From contig FMBT01000291.1 in the NCBI GenBank assembly GCA_900095095.1, forward strand, positions 248,001 through 312,000: a DNA stretch of 64,000 nt, given 5' to 3'. The stretch comes from Fragilariopsis cylindrus CCMP1102. Taxonomy: Eukaryota > Bacillariophyta > Bacillariophyceae > Bacillariales > Bacillariaceae. A program made the position numbers and the translations under genes. The notes beneath the pieces are model-generated. The model was not told the origin of the DNA. It made no database searches and saw only the letters and a program-made list of their open reading frames with translations. How positions within the stretch are numbered: the stretch's first letter is position 1; the number at the start of each line of letters is the position of its first letter. Positions 23,312 to 60,840 of this stretch are shown here, in pieces.

Positions 23312-25070
23312 TTAATCGTCGTCTTTGTCTGGGTACTGCTTATTTCCCTCCATGATGACTTTCATCGTTACGCCTATTCCTTCTCTAGTCCAACGTTTGC
23401 GGTTCCTTTCAACCATTGCTGCAAAAACTCCACCCCTTGTATCACCAAAGGCGCCAGTATCATCCAACATACGGGCCAATGGTAAGAGATAAAAATCTAA
23501 GAATCCGATTTGATTGTTGAACCAACCATTCATTGGGTCGTCACCTTTCTCTTCGATGAAAGCCTTCCGTAACTCCAAGTATAAGCAATCACTCCATTTG
23601 GCCATTTGCTCGAAGCCCTGAAGATTATGTGCCACGTCTGCTGATTTGATAATCGTTTCCATAATGACGGATTCACGCATATCATCAATCTCCTCGGGAG
23701 GAGGGAGTTCATACATTGATAGAATACTAACATCATCGGATGACGCAGAGCACCTTTTGTTTGCATCGTACGTTTCGATAGATGCTCCAGACAAGTCCAT
23801 AGTCCTACGAAAACCAAGTCGTTTATTCCGAGGAGGAGTTATTGCTGAGGTGTTTGTTCCGACCTGTGAAAGTCGACGATGAAACTTCAAAGCTTTTCCT
23901 GACAAGTTGGCTTCAGGATCCTCTGATGATGTGTCACTCCCGTTCTCTTTTTTCTTCATCCTATGTGACTCCCTTTTTCGACCGTTGCTATCATCTTCAT
24001 CTTGGGACGCAAGGGACTCAAGGGATACACTTGAATCGTCTTGTTGTTCAGATTTAATTTTCATTTCATCAAGAATTACCTCAGCGCTATCAGAGTTCGA
24101 TTTACGCTTTTGAACTTCCTTCATCACCTTCCGCTCAACTGTTTCGTAGGGGTCACCAAATGCCTCCTTCCATTTCGTCTTACCCAATTGTGTCCGCTCT
24201 GGAGATGCAATATCTGTGGTCAAAACCTTCGTTCGTTTGTTCGGTTGTGAGTGTAATTGTATTCGAAAAGATTAATAGATTCAAGTTTAGAGGATACGAA
24301 TTCAATACAATAAGATGCAAAAAATATCCGCATATGAAATCTGCGGTAGTCGGACCGTTCAGAGAAAATAAAAGGTAACGTACCATATTCACACAGGCCA
24401 TACGAAATCTGCGGTAGTCGGACCGTTCAGGGAAAATAATACTACGAAACTTGCCATATTTCTTATTGAGTAGTTTAGAAAATCCAATAAATAGTGATTC
24501 ATTCTCCGCAATAGATTGATCATTATACTTAATGGCAAGCTCTTCATCTTCCAATGCTAACTGACGATTAGGAATACCACGATGATCAACATCATGGATT
24601 AATGCCGAAAATAGCATAGCAAATTGCATCAATGGGTCATCACGAAACCCATAGGTATGAACAGGCTTTTCATCGGGGTACACGTGGACAATCATATCAA
24701 CTAATTTGTTCGCTGAGATAGTAACATGATAACAATGTTTGAAGTTATGGTAGGGAACATCATTGTACCCCACAAGGATCGTTGTAACATACTCCTTAAT
24801 CTCATTAATTGCCTCATCGTCTAATTGTTCAGGCCATAAATCATTATTGATCAACATCGACCGACAAATCGTAGTCGTACTAAGGTCGGGAAACATCCCC
24901 CGAGGTTGGATCCATGCAACAATCCGAATCAATAGTAAAGCCGTAATCCTAGTTGCAGTCTCATCGACATCATCTGATGGAGCCGTTGCTGGGTCATTCG
25001 ACAAGCCAGTATCACGCCAATCTTGACTTGTTATTCCCAAGGCAATCCCAATATAACGATTTATAGGCAT
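23312..25070 (-). CDS. 3',5'-cyclic nucleotide phosphodiesterase, class I (one intron)
   Basis: Hydrolyses cAMP/cGMP. Exons 25070-24384 and 24226-23312 join in frame (533 residues) through a 157-nt intron, ATG|GTACGT...GAAG|GTTTTG. Metal-binding residues are present: H108 in YHNFKHCYHV, H159-D160 and H163 in LIHDVDHRGIPN, and D234 in LTTDIASPERTQ just after the junction. The nucleotide-binding glutamine is Q468 in NNQIGFLDFYLLPLARML. About 130 Ser/Asp/Lys-rich residues interrupt the catalytic domain after D234, before SADVAHNLQGFEQMAKWSDC. No transmembrane or cyclase domain is seen upstream of ATG 25070, although diatom PDEs can be fused to cyclases, so an upstream exon cannot be excluded. 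The intron contains a copy of the exon end. Confidence 0.9.
24331..24370 (-). repeat. 40-bp direct repeat, intronic copy
   Basis: Matches 24399-24438 at 38 of 40 bases, 68 bases away. It lies in the 5' half of the PDE intron. Confidence 0.9.
24399..24438 (-). repeat. 40-bp direct repeat, exonic copy
   Basis: Encodes the exon-1 end (IIFPERSDYRRF) of the phosphodiesterase. Weaker similarity continues past the repeat: ATATGGCAAG upstream of the exonic copy corresponds to ATATGGTACG at the actual donor, so the duplicated unit includes the splice site. Confidence 0.85.
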
Positions 25071-25352
25071 TATAATATTAACAAGTAGCTATTCCTTTTA
25101 TATTCAATATATGGTACTAATGATTTCGAAGTATTCTATCAAAAATCTTTCCTTGCGGCATGTATCGACAGAAAATCAAGTCAACTATGAAATGGGAAAA
25201 TACTATGGAGTAACAAAACTTATCTTTTTACCTTCCACTCTTTTTGCAGTGTATTAGAAATGAAAAGCGAACTTCTCTTAGTCTTCGGTTGGTATTACTG
25301 CTTTTGAGCAAGTAACTTATATCATTTCACAAGTACGCTCGCAATAACGACA

Positions 25353-29943: not shown

Positions 29944-31912
29944 TTACTTAGCACCATCTGCATCCAACGCCCCAGCATCTTTTAGAGCATAGAATGCTTT
30001 ATCCGCCAGCGACATGGATTCAAGATCTCTATCTTCCGCGACTGGCTCTGCAACGGGTGTTTCTTCTTCAACTTCTTTCTCTTCTGTCGCAGAGGCCTCT
30101 ACCACAGGGGAGGATTCATCTGCTACTTCGCTTTCCTCGGTAGTTTCTACTTCAAAGCTTTCTTCTCTAGCCTGTGATTCCTCTGCAAGTTTCTCCATGA
30201 GTGATTCATCGAATTCTCCCTCACCATCAACAAATTTCACCTCAAGATCTGCCTTTTCTGCTAAGAAGTCCATCACTGCCTGACGTAGTAGTGTTGCTTC
30301 AACCCTACTGCGAATTTGTGTTTCATCAAAATCCTCCTTTGAATTTTCCGCGTCTTGTTTGATCGACTCCATTTGTTCTTCAATCTGGTAATCTTCTACC
30401 TCAATATTTTCAAGTCTTGCAATTTCATCAGTGGCCATGGAAACTTTGAAGTCCTTAATAATATCGTCCTTGACGATATTCTTATATTTCAAAAAGTTAT
30501 CTGAGTTAATTTGGTTTTTAATTTCGTCGTCATTTACTCCGTTGTTTCGCATATCTGCCATCATCATTGCAAACTTTTCTCGTGCTTGATTAGTCACAAG
30601 CGTATCCGGAACTTCCACATCCATAACTAGTGCTAAAGACTTTGCGAGGGCAGCATTACGTGCAGGTGTATATTCCTTGGCATCTTCGGTATCGACAGCC
30701 GTTTGGAGTTCCTTTTTTAGGGTTTCAGCAGTTAATCCTGCACGAACCTCGTTGGCAAATTCGTCTGTTACTTCCGGTAGAGTACGTTTCGATGCTTCTA
30801 AAACCGTAACATCGAATATTGCTGTCTTTCCTGCCAATGTCTTATCTTTAAGGGCCTATTATTAATGCAAGGGAAGATGTTGTCGGAAAGGAAAATGGCA
30901 AAATTGTGGTGAGATATCGATCGATCGATCAGTAATGAGATGATGATTGAAAAGAGAGAGAAAAAAGGAGGCTATATTGAAAGAAAGAAAAAATTCATTG
31001 ACAAGCTGCGATTTGCTTTGTCGACGACTTTGAACTTACTTCTGGAAAGGTTACTTTTACTTCTTTCGTTTCTTCTACCTTGGCATTGACTAAACCTTCA
31101 ACGAGACCTGTCATGTACCGTCCATCTCCCAAGACAACATCAACTCGATCACCACTGGCTGCTTCAGGTAATTTTTCACCTTTTTGGCCATCATCTGTTG
31201 CCATATATCCCTCCATATTGACAACGCAAGCATCTCCCATTTGTAATGCATAATCTTTATCTTCGATGGGTTCCAACGTAACATATCGTTCTCTCAAATC
31301 ACCAAGAGCTTTGTTGAATTTTACTTCGTCAAAAGGTTTGCGTGTGTACTCTCCCTTCATACCCATGTAGGGTTTGTCTGAGCCCTCTACCGCCGTCCAT
31401 TGAATTTCAGGCCAAACATCACATTTGACAAACATGTCAAAGTCATCACCAGGTTTAAAGTTGTCGGCTAATTCTTCGGCGGCTGTTTCTAATGCTGGTT
31501 GACCGATTGGTTCTAGTCCATGTTCTTCCTTAATAGCAGACTCAATAAGTTCGGATAGTAGTGTATTGATGGCTTGTACTCTCAATGCGTTGCGTCCTCC
31601 CTTGGCGGCCATAGCATTTTCTAATACGGCGGGTGGAATTTTACTACCCTTACGAAAGCCAGGAAGTGTAATTGTTTTTGAAAGTTCGGTACAGACCTTA
31701 TCGTATGCAGCCTTAGTTGCCGAACCGGGGACACCGATTTTGATTCTTACTGCACTGTCTGGAAGACGTTCCAAAGTGGAAGCCTGTAGAGATGTAGAGT
31801 ATCCATCGTATGACAAACGATTGGAAGTGAAGGCCAAATTTAGAGGGACAAACGCTTGTGTTGTTGTGGCAGCCAAAAGCAGACCAGCTATGATGCTTTG
31901 ATGGATTTTCAT
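29944..31912 (-). CDS. tig: Plastid trigger factor (peptidyl-prolyl isomerase chaperone), one intron
   Basis: Ribosome-associated chaperone for nascent chains. Exons 31912-31040 and 30855-29944 join in phase through a 184-nt intron (GAA|GTAAGT...AATAG|GCC), giving 594 residues. The N-terminal signal peptide ends TTTQAFVPLNL, a plastid AF-type motif. The ribosome-binding domain has LPGFRKGSKIPPAVLE, close to the bacterial GFRxGKxP signature. The FKBP domain has LQMGDACVVNMEGYM and TGLVEGLVNAKVEETKEV. The junction falls in KVTFPE/ALKDKTLAGKTAIFDV. The helical C-terminal chaperone domain (NNGVNDDEIKNQI, RSRVEATLLRQAVMDFLAEK) is followed by an extra acidic tail of about 90 residues. Confidence 0.93.
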
Positions 31913-32438
31913 GATGACACTGTATGATGATGATTCTATCGAAGACTATATTATGGAAGTTATTTATTGAGAATGGATTCTGTTTCGATCGAAAAGACGA
32001 TACAATTATTTAAACTACTGGTACAATAAAAAAGAAATTAACAAGATGTTTTCGAGTTTCAGACACCACACATCACAAGGAACAAGCTGCCTTCCACAGA
32101 CAGACTTGTTTCACAAAATTACCTACTAGTAGACAGTAACGTTATCGTGATGGAATTCTTCTTTTTGCTGTTGTGTGGTACGCACTACACAAACTGATAT
32201 CCACGAATGAGAAAAAAGTATGAAGTCAGCCCTTCCGTCCGATAATATTTTGCCACAAAAAATCGATCACATTTGATGAATTTTCTTTTTTTTCAAGTTT
32301 TCTTCACTTGACACAATTTTTTTTTTTGTAAATACACGCTTCTTACATTTCAATTTCATCTCAAAAATTACATTGTACTTGTACTCTAATAGTTTTTGCT
32401 AGCCAGTCTATCGGAATTTAACAAGGCAAATAATCATC
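31913..32438. other. Divergent intergenic region
   Basis: Lies between the divergently transcribed trigger factor and SET-JmjC genes and should hold both promoters. Contains a T9 run near 32318 and no ORF. Confidence 0.5.
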
Positions 32439-35400
32439 ATGTCCCATCCACAACAACCCCTCTTTCAATACCTACGACATGCTACAGATGAAAAAAGGGG
32501 ACGATGTCTTGTCGCCACTGATGAAATACAAAAGGCTCAATTGATATTTCTGGAGCGACCCGTAATTGCCATGCAGTCCATCGGAAATTCTCATGAGGGT
32601 GTCTTGGTGTGTAGCTACTGTATGGCCTTTTGTGGAAGACCTAAACAGGCACTCGATGTGGCTTCGGATCCTACTCTCTTAATGGAAATCGCGACAACGA
32701 ACGGCGATAGCGATGGCGATAGCGATGGCAATGGCGATGACGGTCTCAACAATAATGCAATTGAAGATAAACACACTATACATTGCTGTAGTCACAAATG
32801 CGGTCACATCTATTGCAGTCGTGAATGTCAACAAGATGACTGGGAATGGGGTGGGCATCAAGAATTGTGTACAGGAACGATCCCGGAGCAGGAAATGGAT
32901 ACTAACAGCATCGGCAAAGAAGACGAGATCCCTTCGATGCATCCCCTCTTACAGTTTAAAATGCATGCACGAGAAACTAATGAAATCTTCCTATTGGTTG
33001 CCACCTGGCTGGTTCGGATACTCAAACAAAACTTGCCGTATTATGACGATGACAGTATGCACGATCATCCGTATACTGACTTTCAAATGAATGCATGGTG
33101 GGACGTCAAGACGACAGAATTATTGGCTCAACCCGGTGACAGAACAAGTAGCATCGCTGAAGCGAAGTCATTAGAATTAATCTTAAAAGAACTATGTAGC
33201 GAATCTCACTCGTTTCTATCACAGGCATTACTATTGAATCAACAAAATGATGAGGTAGTTTGTTCTTTTAGTAACTCACTGTGGCTTACACCGCTGGGAA
33301 TGGCAAGATTGGTCGGTTCACTGGAACAAAATTGCTTAGGAATACGAAGAAAGCATGCGCTTCAACACGGCATAATGAATGATACCGACTTGAGACACGG
33401 GCTACATACAGAATTGATTCAGTGTCTAGAAGAAGCTGGATTAATTGGAGACGAAGAAGATGAATCCGAAGCCGACGATGACGACAAATGCGGTGACGAT
33501 GAATGCCATGACGACGAATGCAATGACACCAAATGCGATGACGCAAAATACGACGATAACAATGATGTTCATACCGATAACCGTAACCATAACCGCAACA
33601 ATAAAGACGATGTTGATGACGACGTTGACAATAACGATAATGATAACAACGACGATGGTGTTGATGATGATTCGGGGATGAAAAAAGGTGTTGTATCGGA
33701 ATATTCTCATGATGAAATTGCGGACTTTTTTGCAGGCTTGACAACAGATGACGAATGGTACGATTTCATTCGGCCACTAGATGGGATCTCACATTATTCG
33801 ACTGCTACCAAGATGAATCACTCTTGTGATCCGAATGTTATCTTAGTGTACGAGACGCGAGGTTGGGGAAGAGATCATCCCTTAGTTGCATACTGTATCG
33901 CACTCAGAGATATTGCTCAAGGTGAAGAATTGACAATTAGCTACATTACTTCCGAGGATCCATACGAGAAGCGACAAGCTGATTTGGCGAATTATGGATT
34001 TATTTGTACATGTTCTAAATGTAGTCGAGAAAACGACGATACCATTGAAGGAGAGAAATATTGTGTAGAATGCACAAACTCCCTAGATGAAGACGACCTA
34101 TTCGGAGACGACGACGACGACGACGACGGTGGTCAGAATGTCAAAGAAGCAAATAACCATATGGAGTTCCACAAAAAGAAAGGATCGGTGACGAAGAAAG
34201 AGAAGATTATGATGACAATCAACTCGAACCGATTCTAAACAATTTAAATCAGGCTTCAATACCAATCGCTTACTTGGCACCAGCTTTGAACTACGTTATA
34301 AAAGAAGCTTCTTCTCTTTTGCAAGCTTTGCGAAGTACAAAAGGAGCAGAGAACGAAACGATCATCGAAGATTTGCTAGAGCAGAATATACATGCATTGA
34401 GAGACCGGGATTTCGCATCTTGTCGTATTGTTGGATCCGGCTTAGAACTAATTCTTTACAATCAACTTGAGTCCAATGGATCGTGGTCAAGTTCATTATA
34501 TAGATCATCTTATTGGTTTGCATCAATCACAGCGTCAATTGGCTACGCTAATGAGGGAAGCTTCCTGGTTTCAATGAAATATTTAGACAAGGCAACTATA
34601 TTGGGACTAGACCGGAAAAAATTAGAGTTCTATTTTGGATATGTGGAGCTATTCGCGTCACAAATGGCAGTTGGCCCATGTCCGATAGCTGTCGACTGTA
34701 AGATCTCTGACTTTCAAAGTCCCGAACTCAAAGAGTTAGTTGCTACCAATGCTCTTTCAAAGCCGATACAATTTCCGGTCAATGAGATGATTATTACTTC
34801 ATTCGATCAATCCATTGCATGTGTTATCCGAGACGTAGCATCTGAATGGCCAGCATTGAGAAAGTGGAGAGCTATGGATGTTTTGGCAAGGGAGTTCGGG
34901 CACCGTTTGGTACCCATCGAAATCGGTTCTATGACAAATGGAATGGAAGAAGCTGTTGTTACATTTCGACAATTTGTATCAAAATATCTCTCTACAAGTT
35001 CTACGAAAGATTGCTGGAGTCTAGACGATGCTTAATGGATAGAAAATCCGTTGCTTACATTGCGCAGCATCCCTTGCTTGATCAAATACCAGCTCTTTGC
35101 TCAGACATCGATATGAATCCTTGTGGAGTTCAACCAACAAATATCAATATTTGGATGGGAACAGGTGGAACCCGTACTCCCTTGCATTTTGATAGTTACG
35201 ATAACTTACTTGTACAGCTTGTGGGTGCGAAGTATGTTCGACTTTACGATAGGGAATGTTCGCCACAACTTTATGTAGCAAAGACACTTCTTATGGTGGA
35301 CAAGGAAACATGAGTGTATTGGATTGTGAACGGGAAGACTATGCAAGGCATCCATTAGCTAAGATACTAACTACAAAGAAGTATTGCTATATCCAGGCGA

Positions 35401-35478
35401 TTGCTTATTCATCCCAGCCCGGCATTGGCATTATATCCGGTCACTAGTACAAGCGTAAGCGTCAATTATTGGTTCTGA
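32439..35478 (+). CDS. MYND-SET (SMYD-like) methyltransferase continuing into a JmjC domain; five apparent -1 frameshifts
   Basis: Part 1 (32439-34180) has a MYND-like zinc region ([33 protein letters not shown]) nested in a SET domain with [22 protein letters not shown] and post-[15 protein letters not shown]; an Asp-rich insertion precedes the SET core. After A5 at 34173-34177 the frame changes and continues without any ATG through a helical, TPR-like region into a JMJD5/KDM8-like JmjC fold: [20 protein letters not shown], iron ligands H and D in PLHFDSYDN (35184-35192), GAKYVRLYD, and the distal His in RHWHYIRSL (35429-35431), ending VSVNYWF. Breaks at 34173-34177, 35032-35033, 35280-35282, 35375-35377 and about 35454 each need one added base; the joined length would be 1014 residues. 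Either one fusion protein with assembly errors or a decaying gene. Confidence 0.75.
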
Positions 35479-35961
35479 AGATTCCATTTCGGTTGGTTGA
35501 TTCAAAACATTTCCAAGTAGCATTAAAAGAAGCGATTGCTGAGTTTTGGGTTGTTTGGGAAGTTTTACAAAACTATATGCAAATATAGATATTGAACATA
35601 CTTTAATAATAACAATTTGCTTGTATTCGGGTAATTTCATTACTACTGTAGTATATCATCTAAAACAGTTGCCTCCAAGAGCTATTTGGATAGAATACTA
35701 ATCTGGAAATTAACGGTAAAATCCTACTGTTGTAGCATTTCCCGTACTGAGTAAGGACGCCCCTTTGAGTCGTGTTCATAGTTCATTTTTCATTAATTAC
35801 CACGAGCATATATAATATTGAAATACGGCCTAAAAGTTTCATGTTCAAATGTGGGTGTGTAAAATGCAAACGATCCAAATTACATCGATGCACTGAGAAT
35901 CGAGATTAAGAATTAACTCTATTATTGTATACGAGTAGCCAATCGCAAAAACTCAAAAAAC

Positions 35962-43381: not shown

Positions 43382-45804
43382 CTATGACTCCCTGAAAGTA
43401 TCGTGTGCAGTCCACTGTTCTGCAACAGGTTCTTCAGAAAGGTCAATTTGTTTTGGATTCTCGCATTCCTTGGAACCTTCCACGTTTGAGCAGCTAGAGT
43501 TCACTTCATATCTAATAATTGGTCGAGAGAGTTTTGATTGTTCCACAGCTTGACGAGCATTGGATCTTGCAATTGAAATGGTCTTCTTCACGTCATATTT
43601 TTGGGAAGCTACGGTCGATTTGGAGTAAGACGCCATGGTAGCGGCATCAAAAAGTTCTAACGAGGGTTGTCCCAACCGATAATGTACTATTCGATTCCTT
43701 AACTTGATATCTGTCTCAGCTATGTTCGTGTTCCAATTTCTAGATGTGTCTGTATCCTTAAAGGCGACGACGTATGATCTAGTTTCGGGAAAACCGATTT
43801 TATACTCGTCATACTCAAATGATTCAACAAAACCAAGATCTTTCAATTCTTGAGCAAAACCAGTTTGAAGATGTTTACGAGTTGGTGTTATACTTCTCTT
43901 TGTCATTGATTCAACTACCTTCGTAGATCCAGCAATATTCACGGAGACAACTCCATTATATGATAGTGTATTGTATAATTTGTCGAGGATTGATTGGCGA
44001 TTTGACATCATCTCAATCGCGAATTCTTCTTCCATATCACTGTAATATACGGTTGAATATTAGGGAAGATGTACAATAACTATTTCGGTGAGGTTTCGTG
44101 GACTTAAGAATGTGCATAATATGATCGAATAATAATACTCTATCCAAAACAAAATAAACAAACAGAACTGATTTTTTACTTACAACAAATCAATCAACGC
44201 CACGTCGAAGGGTGTACCGTCATAGTTCGAAATCCATTCCGAAGGAGTTTGATCATAAACAAAGTTCACACGACGATCGTCAAAGCAACTACTAATAATA
44301 TCCTTTTTGCCGTTTGTGTATGAACAATCGTTCCATTCGGAAAGATGTTTTCGTGCAAATTCTGTCATATCCTTATCGGCCCCAACAACAGTCACATGTT
44401 CAACACCCTTGTGTTTTAGGACTTCACGAGTTGAAGCTCCTAACCCGGCTCCAAAAATAAGAACACGTTTCGGATCGTCGTGTGAAATCATTGGAGGATG
44501 GACGAAACTTTCATGAGCGGCCGCTTGTCCAAAGGAATTACTTTTCAACACACCATCTAAATAGAATTGTTTGCTAATAGAAGGAAGATTTTGTTCTTGC
44601 ATCTCATAAACTCGTGCTATTTTTCCCGTGCTAGTCTCCATGGATGCAATCTATATATTATACAGTAAGGAGAGAAAATCAGAAATATTGTAACGTGAGA
44701 ATAAGGAGAGATAAGTGGATCGCATAACGTCTAACGCATAACAAGGAAATTTGAGGTGGTTGTATACATTCCAAGGTAGAAGAACACACAATGCAGTACA
44801 GCATATCTTTGTTTATATATGATTATATTTCGTACCTCCTTCTTATAATCCATACCGAGGAGTCCTAATGGGTATGCAAATGTATCACGTCCACCAACAG
44901 AAGACGATTGTTCATTGAAACCACGTCTCTTGTATGCCCAAATAACGGCAGGATCGACATTCTCATCACGTGGAATAATAAAAAGATTTTCAATTAATAC
45001 CATTGAATCTAATAATGATGTGGAACCACACGTGAATAAATCTAATGTAATAACACCCTCTGCTGGCCATGTATGGAATGCAACATGACTTTCTAATAGC
45101 ACACCTGCACAACTAACACCCTCTGGGTATAATCCATGACAATGATAGGAAAGTAGTGTTAGGCCACTATTATCGACTAATGAAATCATTGCAGTAGCAA
45201 GTCGTGCCTCTGAATTTAAGAAAGATGAATCAAGACCATCAATATCTACCAATAAATGTTGTCCAGCAGGTAGATGTTGTTCTTCATCCATATCGTATTG
45301 TGCTTCGTTGTCATTGTTTTCATCAAAACTTAATTTTCCATTCAGTGGATCAGGAACATTAATGTTGTCGTTTGTGGGTGAGGCATTGGGACTACTACCG
45401 TCTTCATGATTATTACTATTATTATTGTTGTTGTTTTCTTCTTCTTGGTCTTCGTCAGCTGGTTGTAACCATTGTGATGCAATCACTGCGGATAAACGAG
45501 TATCAAAATTCTTCGTTGTGTAGATAGTATTAGGAATAATCTTCCCAATTTGTGCCTTTGGAGTTGGAAGTAATCCACTACCGCCACCACCACCACCATC
45601 TTTTCCTCTTTGTGAGGATTGTAATTTGGACTGTATTTGTTGTAATTTGGAAATTTCTATTGCGTTATTATCGAAATCAGGAATGAGATAGAATCGTGTT
45701 ATCCTTCCTATAGTAAAAGTAACGAAACTACATGATAGTAGACATGTTATTAGAAACCGTAATGATACAGTAGCTTTTTGCTGATGCTTGATGTTGTTCG
45801 CCAT
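43382..45804 (-). CDS. Bifunctional S-adenosylmethionine decarboxylase / aminopropyltransferase, membrane anchored, three exons
   Basis: Exons 45804-44836, 44650-44184 and 44039-43382 join in frame (697 residues); introns are 185 nt (GTACGA...TATAG) and 144 nt (GTAAGT...TACAG). Residues 1-40 carry one membrane span (SLRFLITCLLSCSFVTFTIG). A Gly/Asn-rich linker leads to a bacterial-type SpeH decarboxylase: GQHLLVDIDGL, then VLLESHVAFHTWPAEGV, with predicted autocleavage between E238 and S239 giving the pyruvoyl group, and LDLFTCG. Residues from about 324 form an aminopropyltransferase (SKQFYLDG, RVLIFGAGLGASTREVLKH, VALIDLFD). The usual spermidine-synthase GGGDGG is GAGLGA, so the acceptor may not be putrescine. 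Making and using decarboxylated AdoMet in one secretory-route protein suits long-chain polyamine synthesis for silica. Confidence 0.88.
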
Positions 45805-46570
45805 GGTGGTTGTATTATTTTCTGGTACGTTATTTTGAACTGAGTTTTGATTGTTCTGTTTTCAAGTTAGATATAATTTCGAGATGTGAATTCTTGATGT
45901 GAATTGATTTCTATCTACAGTAGTAGTTGTCACTGACGTGCACACCGGTTCAGATTAAGTACATCAAACAAGAAGTAGATACAAGAGAAGTGCATCTAAA
46001 GAAAGCACGATCGATTACTTACTACGTAAATGTTGTAGGTCGATACTACAGTACATGCCGCGTGCATTCAATATTGTGAGGATAATTATGCACGTGCTAT
46101 TTGATCCCCTTCCTCGTTTTATCGGCGTTGAGAATAACAAGCGAAAAAAATCGTACTTGAAAAATGAATGTAACGCTTCTTGTTATGGACGTATTTGTTT
46201 AAATGGCAGCGTGACGAGCTGAAAAAAATCATACACATACAAACCTTTACTTTTTTTAATTCCAATTCGCATTGCTCACACAAAAGGCGCTAGAGAAACT
46301 AAAGAATGTCGATCTGCTAAATAAAAAGATCTACAATCGCTGCAATATCAAATGTTGTGGAATTTCATTTCATCACAAGTACACATGTAGCAAAGACAGA
46401 CCAGTGCTCGAAGATCTTAACAGTTTCCATTAGCAAGAAGAATTATGTGCTGGCAATTCATTCATTCAAGTTATTTTATAGGTACCTGGGCTGGACCCTC
46501 TTTCATCCTCTCCTGCTACACTTCATTACTATACTCTCATCATTATTGTTATTATGCTGTTGCAGGTCTG

Positions 46571-60260: not shown

Positions 60261-60840
60261 GATATTTATTAACCATTGACGTATTCGGGATTGGAGACCT
60301 GACGAATATTTAAATTCGTCAGGTCTTCAAGATAGATCATCCTAAAGTTTACTATTTACATGATATTATTTATTAACCATCGACGTATTTGGGATTGGTG
60401 ATAATAGCTTTTATGACGCGCGCGACATTAAATATTCTTCTGGTCTTCACGATTATCCTAAAGTTTACTATTTTCCATGATATTATTTATTAACCATTGA
60501 CGTATTTGGGATTGGTGATAATACTTGTAGCTTTTGCTTACGACGCGACATTACTTATTCTTCTGTTCTTATATCTTCAAGATTATCCTAAAGTTTACTA
60601 TTTTCCATGATATTATTTATTAACCATTGAAGTATTTGGGATTGGTGATATTAGCTTTTGCTTGCGACGCGATATTACATATTCTTCTGTTCTTATATCT
60701 TCAAGATTATCCTAAAGTTTATTATTATACATCATGATATTATTTATTAACCATTGAAGTATTTGGGATTGGTGTAATAGCTTTTGCTTGCGACGCGACA
60801 TTACATTATTCTTCTCGTCTTCATGACGTGATACAGAATA
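60261..60840 (+). repeat. Tandem array of about 104-130-bp units, five copies
   Basis: TTATTAACCAT(T/C)GA(C/A)GTATTYGGGATTGG recurs with AACCAT at 60271, 60375, 60492, 60622 and about 60749. Units also share CCTAAAGTTTA, GACGCGA and TATTCTTCT blocks. Copies 3-5 are the most alike, which suggests recent growth from that side. Confidence 0.88.
60296..60325. repeat. Perfect 12-bp inverted repeat, 6-base loop
   Basis: Arms GACCTGACGAAT and ATTCGTCAGGTC around ATTTAA, inside unit 1 of the array only. Confidence 0.9.

What the first reader, a model, noticed from the sequence alone, without database searches (positions are those of the whole stretch)
32439..35478. Lysine methyltransferase (MYND-SET) apparently fused to a JMJD5-like JmjC hydroxylase/demethylase
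The SET reading frame runs to 34180 and, with one base added at an A5 run, continues directly into a helical region and a full JmjC domain with HxD...H iron ligands. The JmjC frame has an in-frame stop near 34157 and no ATG before its conserved region, so it cannot easily be a separate gene. Five one-base corrections give exactly 3045 bases, a whole number of codons. A writer and a 2-oxoglutarate oxygenase in one chain would be an unusual architecture.
Basis: partly seen in the sequence, partly recalled or inferred. Interest (0 to 1): 0.8.

Follow-up and report, generated by a model that had tools for sequence, protein, structure and literature searches.

The report
Diatom SMYD-like/JMJD5-like fusion gene
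A diatom gene seems to join a protein-methylating enzyme and an oxygen-using (JMJD5-like) enzyme in one protein; its reading frame is broken here, probably by sequencing errors, and a methylase-plus-JmjC protein was already reported from another diatom in 2011.

Summary
A SMYD-like SET frame runs 32439-34235. A JMJD5-like 2-oxoglutarate oxygenase follows on the same strand without a gap, in overlapping frames to 35478. Joined with X at five frame steps, the chain matches SET (E 3e-11) and Cupin_8/JmjC (E 9e-37); JMJD5 is the best solved relative of the second half (E 1.6e-34), with HxD...H aligned. zf-MYND is not recognised. Codon usage shows coding on one strand with few frame steps. A second, near-identical contig (C597) reads through the last two steps in one frame to the conserved end, so those two are contig-specific, most likely errors. 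The other three steps, the joint of the two halves included, are shared by both contigs and are not proven errors. The architecture is not new: a SET+JmjC protein, also listed as SMYD, with cDNA PCR (data not shown), was reported from Phaeodactylum tricornutum in 2011 (PMC3145265). Added here: the JMJD5-type identity of the second half, which hints at hydroxylase rather than demethylase chemistry. The genome also holds a separate Cupin_8 gene, without SET match, whose best solved relative is JMJD5.

The parts
32439..34238 (+). SMYD-like SET-domain half, frame 0, ATG to the frame-0 stop
32610..32870 (+). MYND-like Cys/His cluster, split by an acidic insertion; no Pfam zf-MYND match
   Evidence: sequence
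33476..33680 (+). Asp/Asn-rich low-complexity insertion between the MYND-like part and the SET core (tandem array called at 33476-33547; rest by eye)
33771..34043 (+). SET core ([15 protein letters not shown]) and post-SET CTCSKC, aligned with SMYD3
34157..34235 (+). stretch where frames 0 and 2 are both open: first frame step, the fusion joint; A-rich, holds the A5 run; identical in both contigs
34181..34819 (+). helical-looking region before the JmjC domain, frame 2; no Pfam match for 34160-34780
34820..35478 (+). JMJD5-like JmjC (Cupin_8) domain over frames 2, 1, 0, 2, 1 to TGA; HxD at 35185-35193, distal His at 35429-35431
34888..35947 (+). stretch where contigs C90 and C597 differ: 20 columns, 15 gaps and 5 substitutions; frame steps 2-5 lie in it

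Best explanation
A single diatom gene encodes one chain of about 1014 residues: an N-terminal SMYD-like lysine methyltransferase and a C-terminal JMJD5-like Fe(II)/2-oxoglutarate oxygenase. The breaks in its frame are most likely missing bases in the assembly. Most likely mechanism (inferred, not shown): the SET half methylates a lysine with AdoMet, the JmjC half hydroxylates (less likely demethylates) a residue using oxygen and 2-oxoglutarate, and the fusion brings both to the same target or complex. Shown here: domain homology, ligand residues, continuous coding on one strand, the same arrangement on two contigs. Not shown: transcript, protein, either activity, substrate.
For: Pieces and X-joined chain match SET and Cupin_8; SMYD3 E 5.5e-7; JMJD5 E 1.6e-34 over 221 residues to the C-terminus. 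Coding signal runs through the joint with an abrupt change of frame and no gap. Frame 2 has no ATG before 34574. In 28,158 bases of 22 long window ORFs, which also trained it, the decoder took 4 steps at penalty 6 and none at 7 or 8 (penalty 5 not tried there). Frame steps 2-5 lie in the 1.06-kb stretch where the contigs differ (20 columns, 15 of them gaps); from 27.0 kb to 34,887 they do not differ. C597 reads [37 protein letters not shown] and stop in one frame, across the last two steps of the window, and this fits the end of JMJD5. Published precedent: P. tricornutum bd1647.
Against: Three of the five steps (joint, after SLDD, after VDKE) are present in both contigs; the contigs are identical around them, so they may not be independent evidence, but neither do they show error. 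C597 has breaks of its own. The genome holds another Cupin_8 gene nearest to JMJD5 (1.6e-20), so loss of this JmjC half would be tolerable. No reads, cDNA or other diatom sequences could be consulted.
Confidence: 0.66

Rival explanations
1. The breaks are real: the JMJD5-like half is a decaying pseudogene, and only a SET protein ending at 34238 is made.
For: The SET half is intact while the breaks lie at or after the joint; three of five steps are in both contigs; both contigs are broken in the JmjC half; another JMJD5-nearest gene exists.
Against: Ligands, conserved residues and coding signal persist almost to the end (the last 120 bases score weakly); the indel-rich difference between contigs continues past the gene to 35947, as errors would; C597 lacks two of the breaks.
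Confidence: 0.15
2. The halves are joined by splicing: a short intron removes the frame-0 stop. The protein is still a fusion, but the joint is not an error.
For: 24 frame-compatible GT-AG pairs exist around the joint, among them 34140-34252 (113 nt).
Against: None of the 24 has a donor matching GTAAGT at more than 4 of 6 places; 34140-34252 is A-rich and scores as coding in frame 0, then frame 2, unlike the inferred trigger-factor intron nearby (GTAAGT, T-rich). Only that one intron served for comparison.
Confidence: 0.12
3. Two adjacent genes, SET and JMJD5-like, with their own transcripts.
For: In the solved human relatives they are separate proteins; the assembled sequence has a stop between them.
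Against: The open frames overlap, with no ATG in frame before 34574, and a SET+JmjC protein is published for a diatom.
Confidence: 0.06

Closest known systems
Phaeodactylum tricornutum bd1647 (SET+JmjC, also listed under SMYD), PMC3145265
   Same: Diatom; SMYD-type SET plus JmjC in one gene model; SET first (the paper calls the Neurospora order opposite); PCR on cDNA said to confirm it (data not shown)
   Different: Its sequence was not seen here; whether its JmjC is JMJD5-like and whether it is the ortholog are untested; 'jmjd5' was not among the terms looked up in the paper
Filamentous-fungal JmjC-SET proteins, PMC2474616
   Same: SET and JmjC in one chain
   Different: Named JmjC-SET, SET related to SET3/4 and of doubtful activity by that paper; not SMYD
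JMJD5/KDM8
   Same: Best solved relative over the catalytic domain, ligands aligned
   Different: The solved chains are catalytic-domain constructs of 235-271 residues; no SET half
SMYD3
   Same: SET core and post-SET cysteines align
   Different: MYND here is interrupted and not recognised; acidic insertion; a JmjC part follows

Membership tests
SMYD lysine methyltransferases | SET catalytic core with NHSC and GEEL..Y motifs | tested here: met
   Pfam SET 9.3e-11, SMYD3 alignment
SMYD lysine methyltransferases | Post-SET CxCxxC | tested here: met
   CTCSKC aligns with SMYD3 CDCFRC
SMYD lysine methyltransferases | MYND zinc finger | tested here: inconclusive
   No zf-MYND match; SMYD3 alignment of residues 111-144 scores -4.4, not significant; Cys/His pattern by eye
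JMJD5/KDM8 oxygenases | JmjC/Cupin_8 domain nearest JMJD5 | tested here: met
   E 1.6e-34 against 7.5e-11 for JMJD7, the next family, on the X-joined chain; by best solved relative only, no tree
JMJD5/KDM8 oxygenases | HxD...H iron ligands | tested here: met
   PLHFD and HWHY align with JMJD5 PLHQD and YWHY
JMJD5/KDM8 oxygenases | N-terminal helical domain | tested here: inconclusive
   No Pfam match for 34160-34780; likeness to the human N-terminus is recalled only; structure jobs were not accepted
JMJD5/KDM8 oxygenases | Arginyl hydroxylase or demethylase activity | not testable with these tools
   needs an assay
Diatom SET+JmjC protein (bd1647 kind) | SET then JmjC in one transcript | tested here: inconclusive
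   Continuous coding and homology, but no transcript and an unproven joint

The most novel reading that the evidence does not exclude
A diatom enzyme kind pairs a SMYD methyltransferase with a JMJD5-type arginyl hydroxylase, not a writer with an eraser: one chain that puts methyl-lysine and hydroxy-arginine on the same target, tying AdoMet, oxygen and 2-oxoglutarate levels together.
Probability: 0.22. Interest if true: 0.58.

Novelty: new member of a known kind. Interest (0 to 1): 0.32.

Why it matters
It supports the 2011 report of a diatom SET+JmjC protein with a second case (species not identified here), narrows the JmjC half to the JMJD5 type, and so argues against the simple picture of methylase and demethylase opposed in one chain. 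It also shows how indels in a draft assembly can hide such a gene.

Tried and rejected
Viral contigs were scanned with window:34846-35310 (no pattern match) and bacterial and archaeal genome contigs with the X-joined second half (15 pattern matches, none confirmed): neither collection is meant for eukaryotes, so these nulls say nothing about diatoms.

'The only JMJD5 of the genome' was considered and rejected on re-check. Searches with pieces of the second half found only C90, C597 and a weak 57-residue match on C265 (E 1.2e-5). But of 31 Cupin_8 matches, 3 belong to this gene's two copies; of the other 28, four were compared with solved structures: C229 is nearest JMJD5 (1.6e-20), C158 nearest FIH, C756 and C265 nearest JMJD7. 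24 were not classified. C229 and its near twin C311 show no SET match in their open frames. My confidence in the fused intact gene was lowered (0.72 to 0.66) and that of the pseudogene rival raised (0.10 to 0.15), because of this and because three steps, not one, are shared by both contigs; the novel case went from 0.25 to 0.22.

The other SET loci (two on C265, one on C164) do not coincide with the Cupin_8 places, a list that is a lower bound. Programmed -1 frameshifting at the A-rich joint was set aside: it would explain one of five steps, and the heptamer is not canonical (rule recalled). Structure prediction could not be run: the machine was busy.

Full report
Setting. The window is bases 248001-312000 of contig C90 of a 67.9-Mb, 818-contig genome. 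The species was not identified.

The two halves. The frame from the ATG at 32439 is open to 34235. It matches Pfam SET at 9.3e-11 and SMYD3 at 5.5e-7 over the SET core and post-SET. The next frame, open 34157-35032, and those after it hold a helical-looking stretch and a JmjC domain. The piece 34846-35310 alone matches Cupin_8 at 2.7e-15 and JMJD5 structures at 5.7e-15. Joined with X at the frame steps, the chain matches Cupin_8 at 9.3e-37 and its second half JMJD5 at 1.6e-34, against 7.5e-11 for JMJD7; the HxD and the distal His align.

One coding strand. Codon scores trained on 22 other long ORFs of the window place the coding frame at 0, then 2, 1, 0 in blocks; a few windows inside the SET half favour another frame, and the last 120 bases of the gene score weakly and are placed by the JMJD5 alignment instead. 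A frame-switching decoder found 5 missing bases at penalty 5, and 3 missing plus 1 extra at penalties 6-9; in 50 shuffles at each of penalties 6, 7 and 8 the fewest events were 28, 19 and 17. At the joint, coding signal is continuous: frame 0 leads to about 34190, frame 2 from about 34160. There is no room for an intergenic region.

Errors or real breaks. A second contig, C597, of which 70,000 bases were compared, is 98.4-99.4% identical in five long pieces; 119 of 168 gap openings there are of one base. From 27.0 kb to 34,887 the contigs do not differ; from 34,888 to 35,947 they differ at 20 columns, 15 gaps and 5 substitutions, inside and beyond the gene. Frame steps 2 to 5 fall in that stretch. 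C597 reads through the places of steps 4 and 5 in one frame to ...[18 protein letters not shown] and stop, as the JMJD5 alignment asks, though it lacks other bases just upstream. Steps 1, 2 and 3 are in both contigs. So two steps are contig-specific and most likely errors; two more lie in the noisy stretch but are shared; the joint lies in a difference-free stretch and may be a shared error, an intron or real. All 24 frame-compatible GT-AG pairs tested there (donors 34041-34236, acceptors to 34329, introns of 41 bases or more) have donors with at most 4 of 6 matches to GTAAGT, whereas the inferred trigger-factor intron on the other strand begins GTAAGT. An intron would still leave a fusion.

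Context in the genome. Protein searches with pieces of the second half found this locus, its twin on C597 and a weak match on C265. However, a Cupin_8 gene on C229, with a near twin on C311, has JMJD5 as its best solved relative (1.6e-20, FIH 4.9e-13) and no SET match in its open frame. So the genome probably has an unfused JMJD5-like protein too; 24 of the 28 other Cupin_8 places were not classified.

Literature. PMC3145265 (2011; passages seen) reports a P. tricornutum gene model with SET and JmjC domains, says PCR on cDNA confirmed it (data not shown), lists bd1647 under both SMYD and SET+JmjC, gives 'not found' for the two other species of its table, and notes the opposite order in Neurospora. 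PMC2474616 (2008; passages) describes JmjC-SET in filamentous fungi and says the combination was unknown elsewhere. PMC9692433 (2022; passages) set such fungal genes aside as ungrouped. A diatom transcriptome paper lists a 'putative lysine-specific demethylase JMJD5' (PMC7017206, one passage), without architecture. PMC2579438 (passages) added nothing. Nine searches of the held, partial library showed no paper that by its title or the start of its abstract treats a SMYD-JMJD5 pairing; one search listed 20 of 430 papers.

Verdict. A real and somewhat unusual gene, most likely one fused chain, of a kind already reported. What could surprise is the JMJD5 identity of the second half, which suggests hydroxylase chemistry; that is an inference from homology.

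Noticed in passing
29947-31945 (-): A trigger-factor gene (Trigger_N, FKBP_C, then Trigger_C) in two ORFs, parted by an inferred 184-nt GTAAGT...TAG intron.
   Followed up: partly
23315-25088 (-): A cyclic-nucleotide phosphodiesterase domain (PDEase_I) split over two overlapping ORFs: an intron or a frame error.
   Followed up: no
44183-45861 (-): AdoMet decarboxylase and spermine/spermidine synthase domains in neighbouring ORFs on the same strand; possibly one bifunctional polyamine gene.
   Followed up: no
8231-64000, against C597:25000-91559: Near-identical second contig with difference-free blocks (18-25 kb, 27-34.9 kb, 48-54 kb) and sharp clusters of indels; likely a haplotig.
   Followed up: partly
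L019 (C229) 1165-2493 and L020 (C311) 1162-2484: A separate Cupin_8 gene whose best solved relative is JMJD5, with no SET match (only L019 was compared with structures).
   Followed up: partly
60334-60815: Tandem array of a 124-base unit, about 3.9 copies.
   Followed up: no
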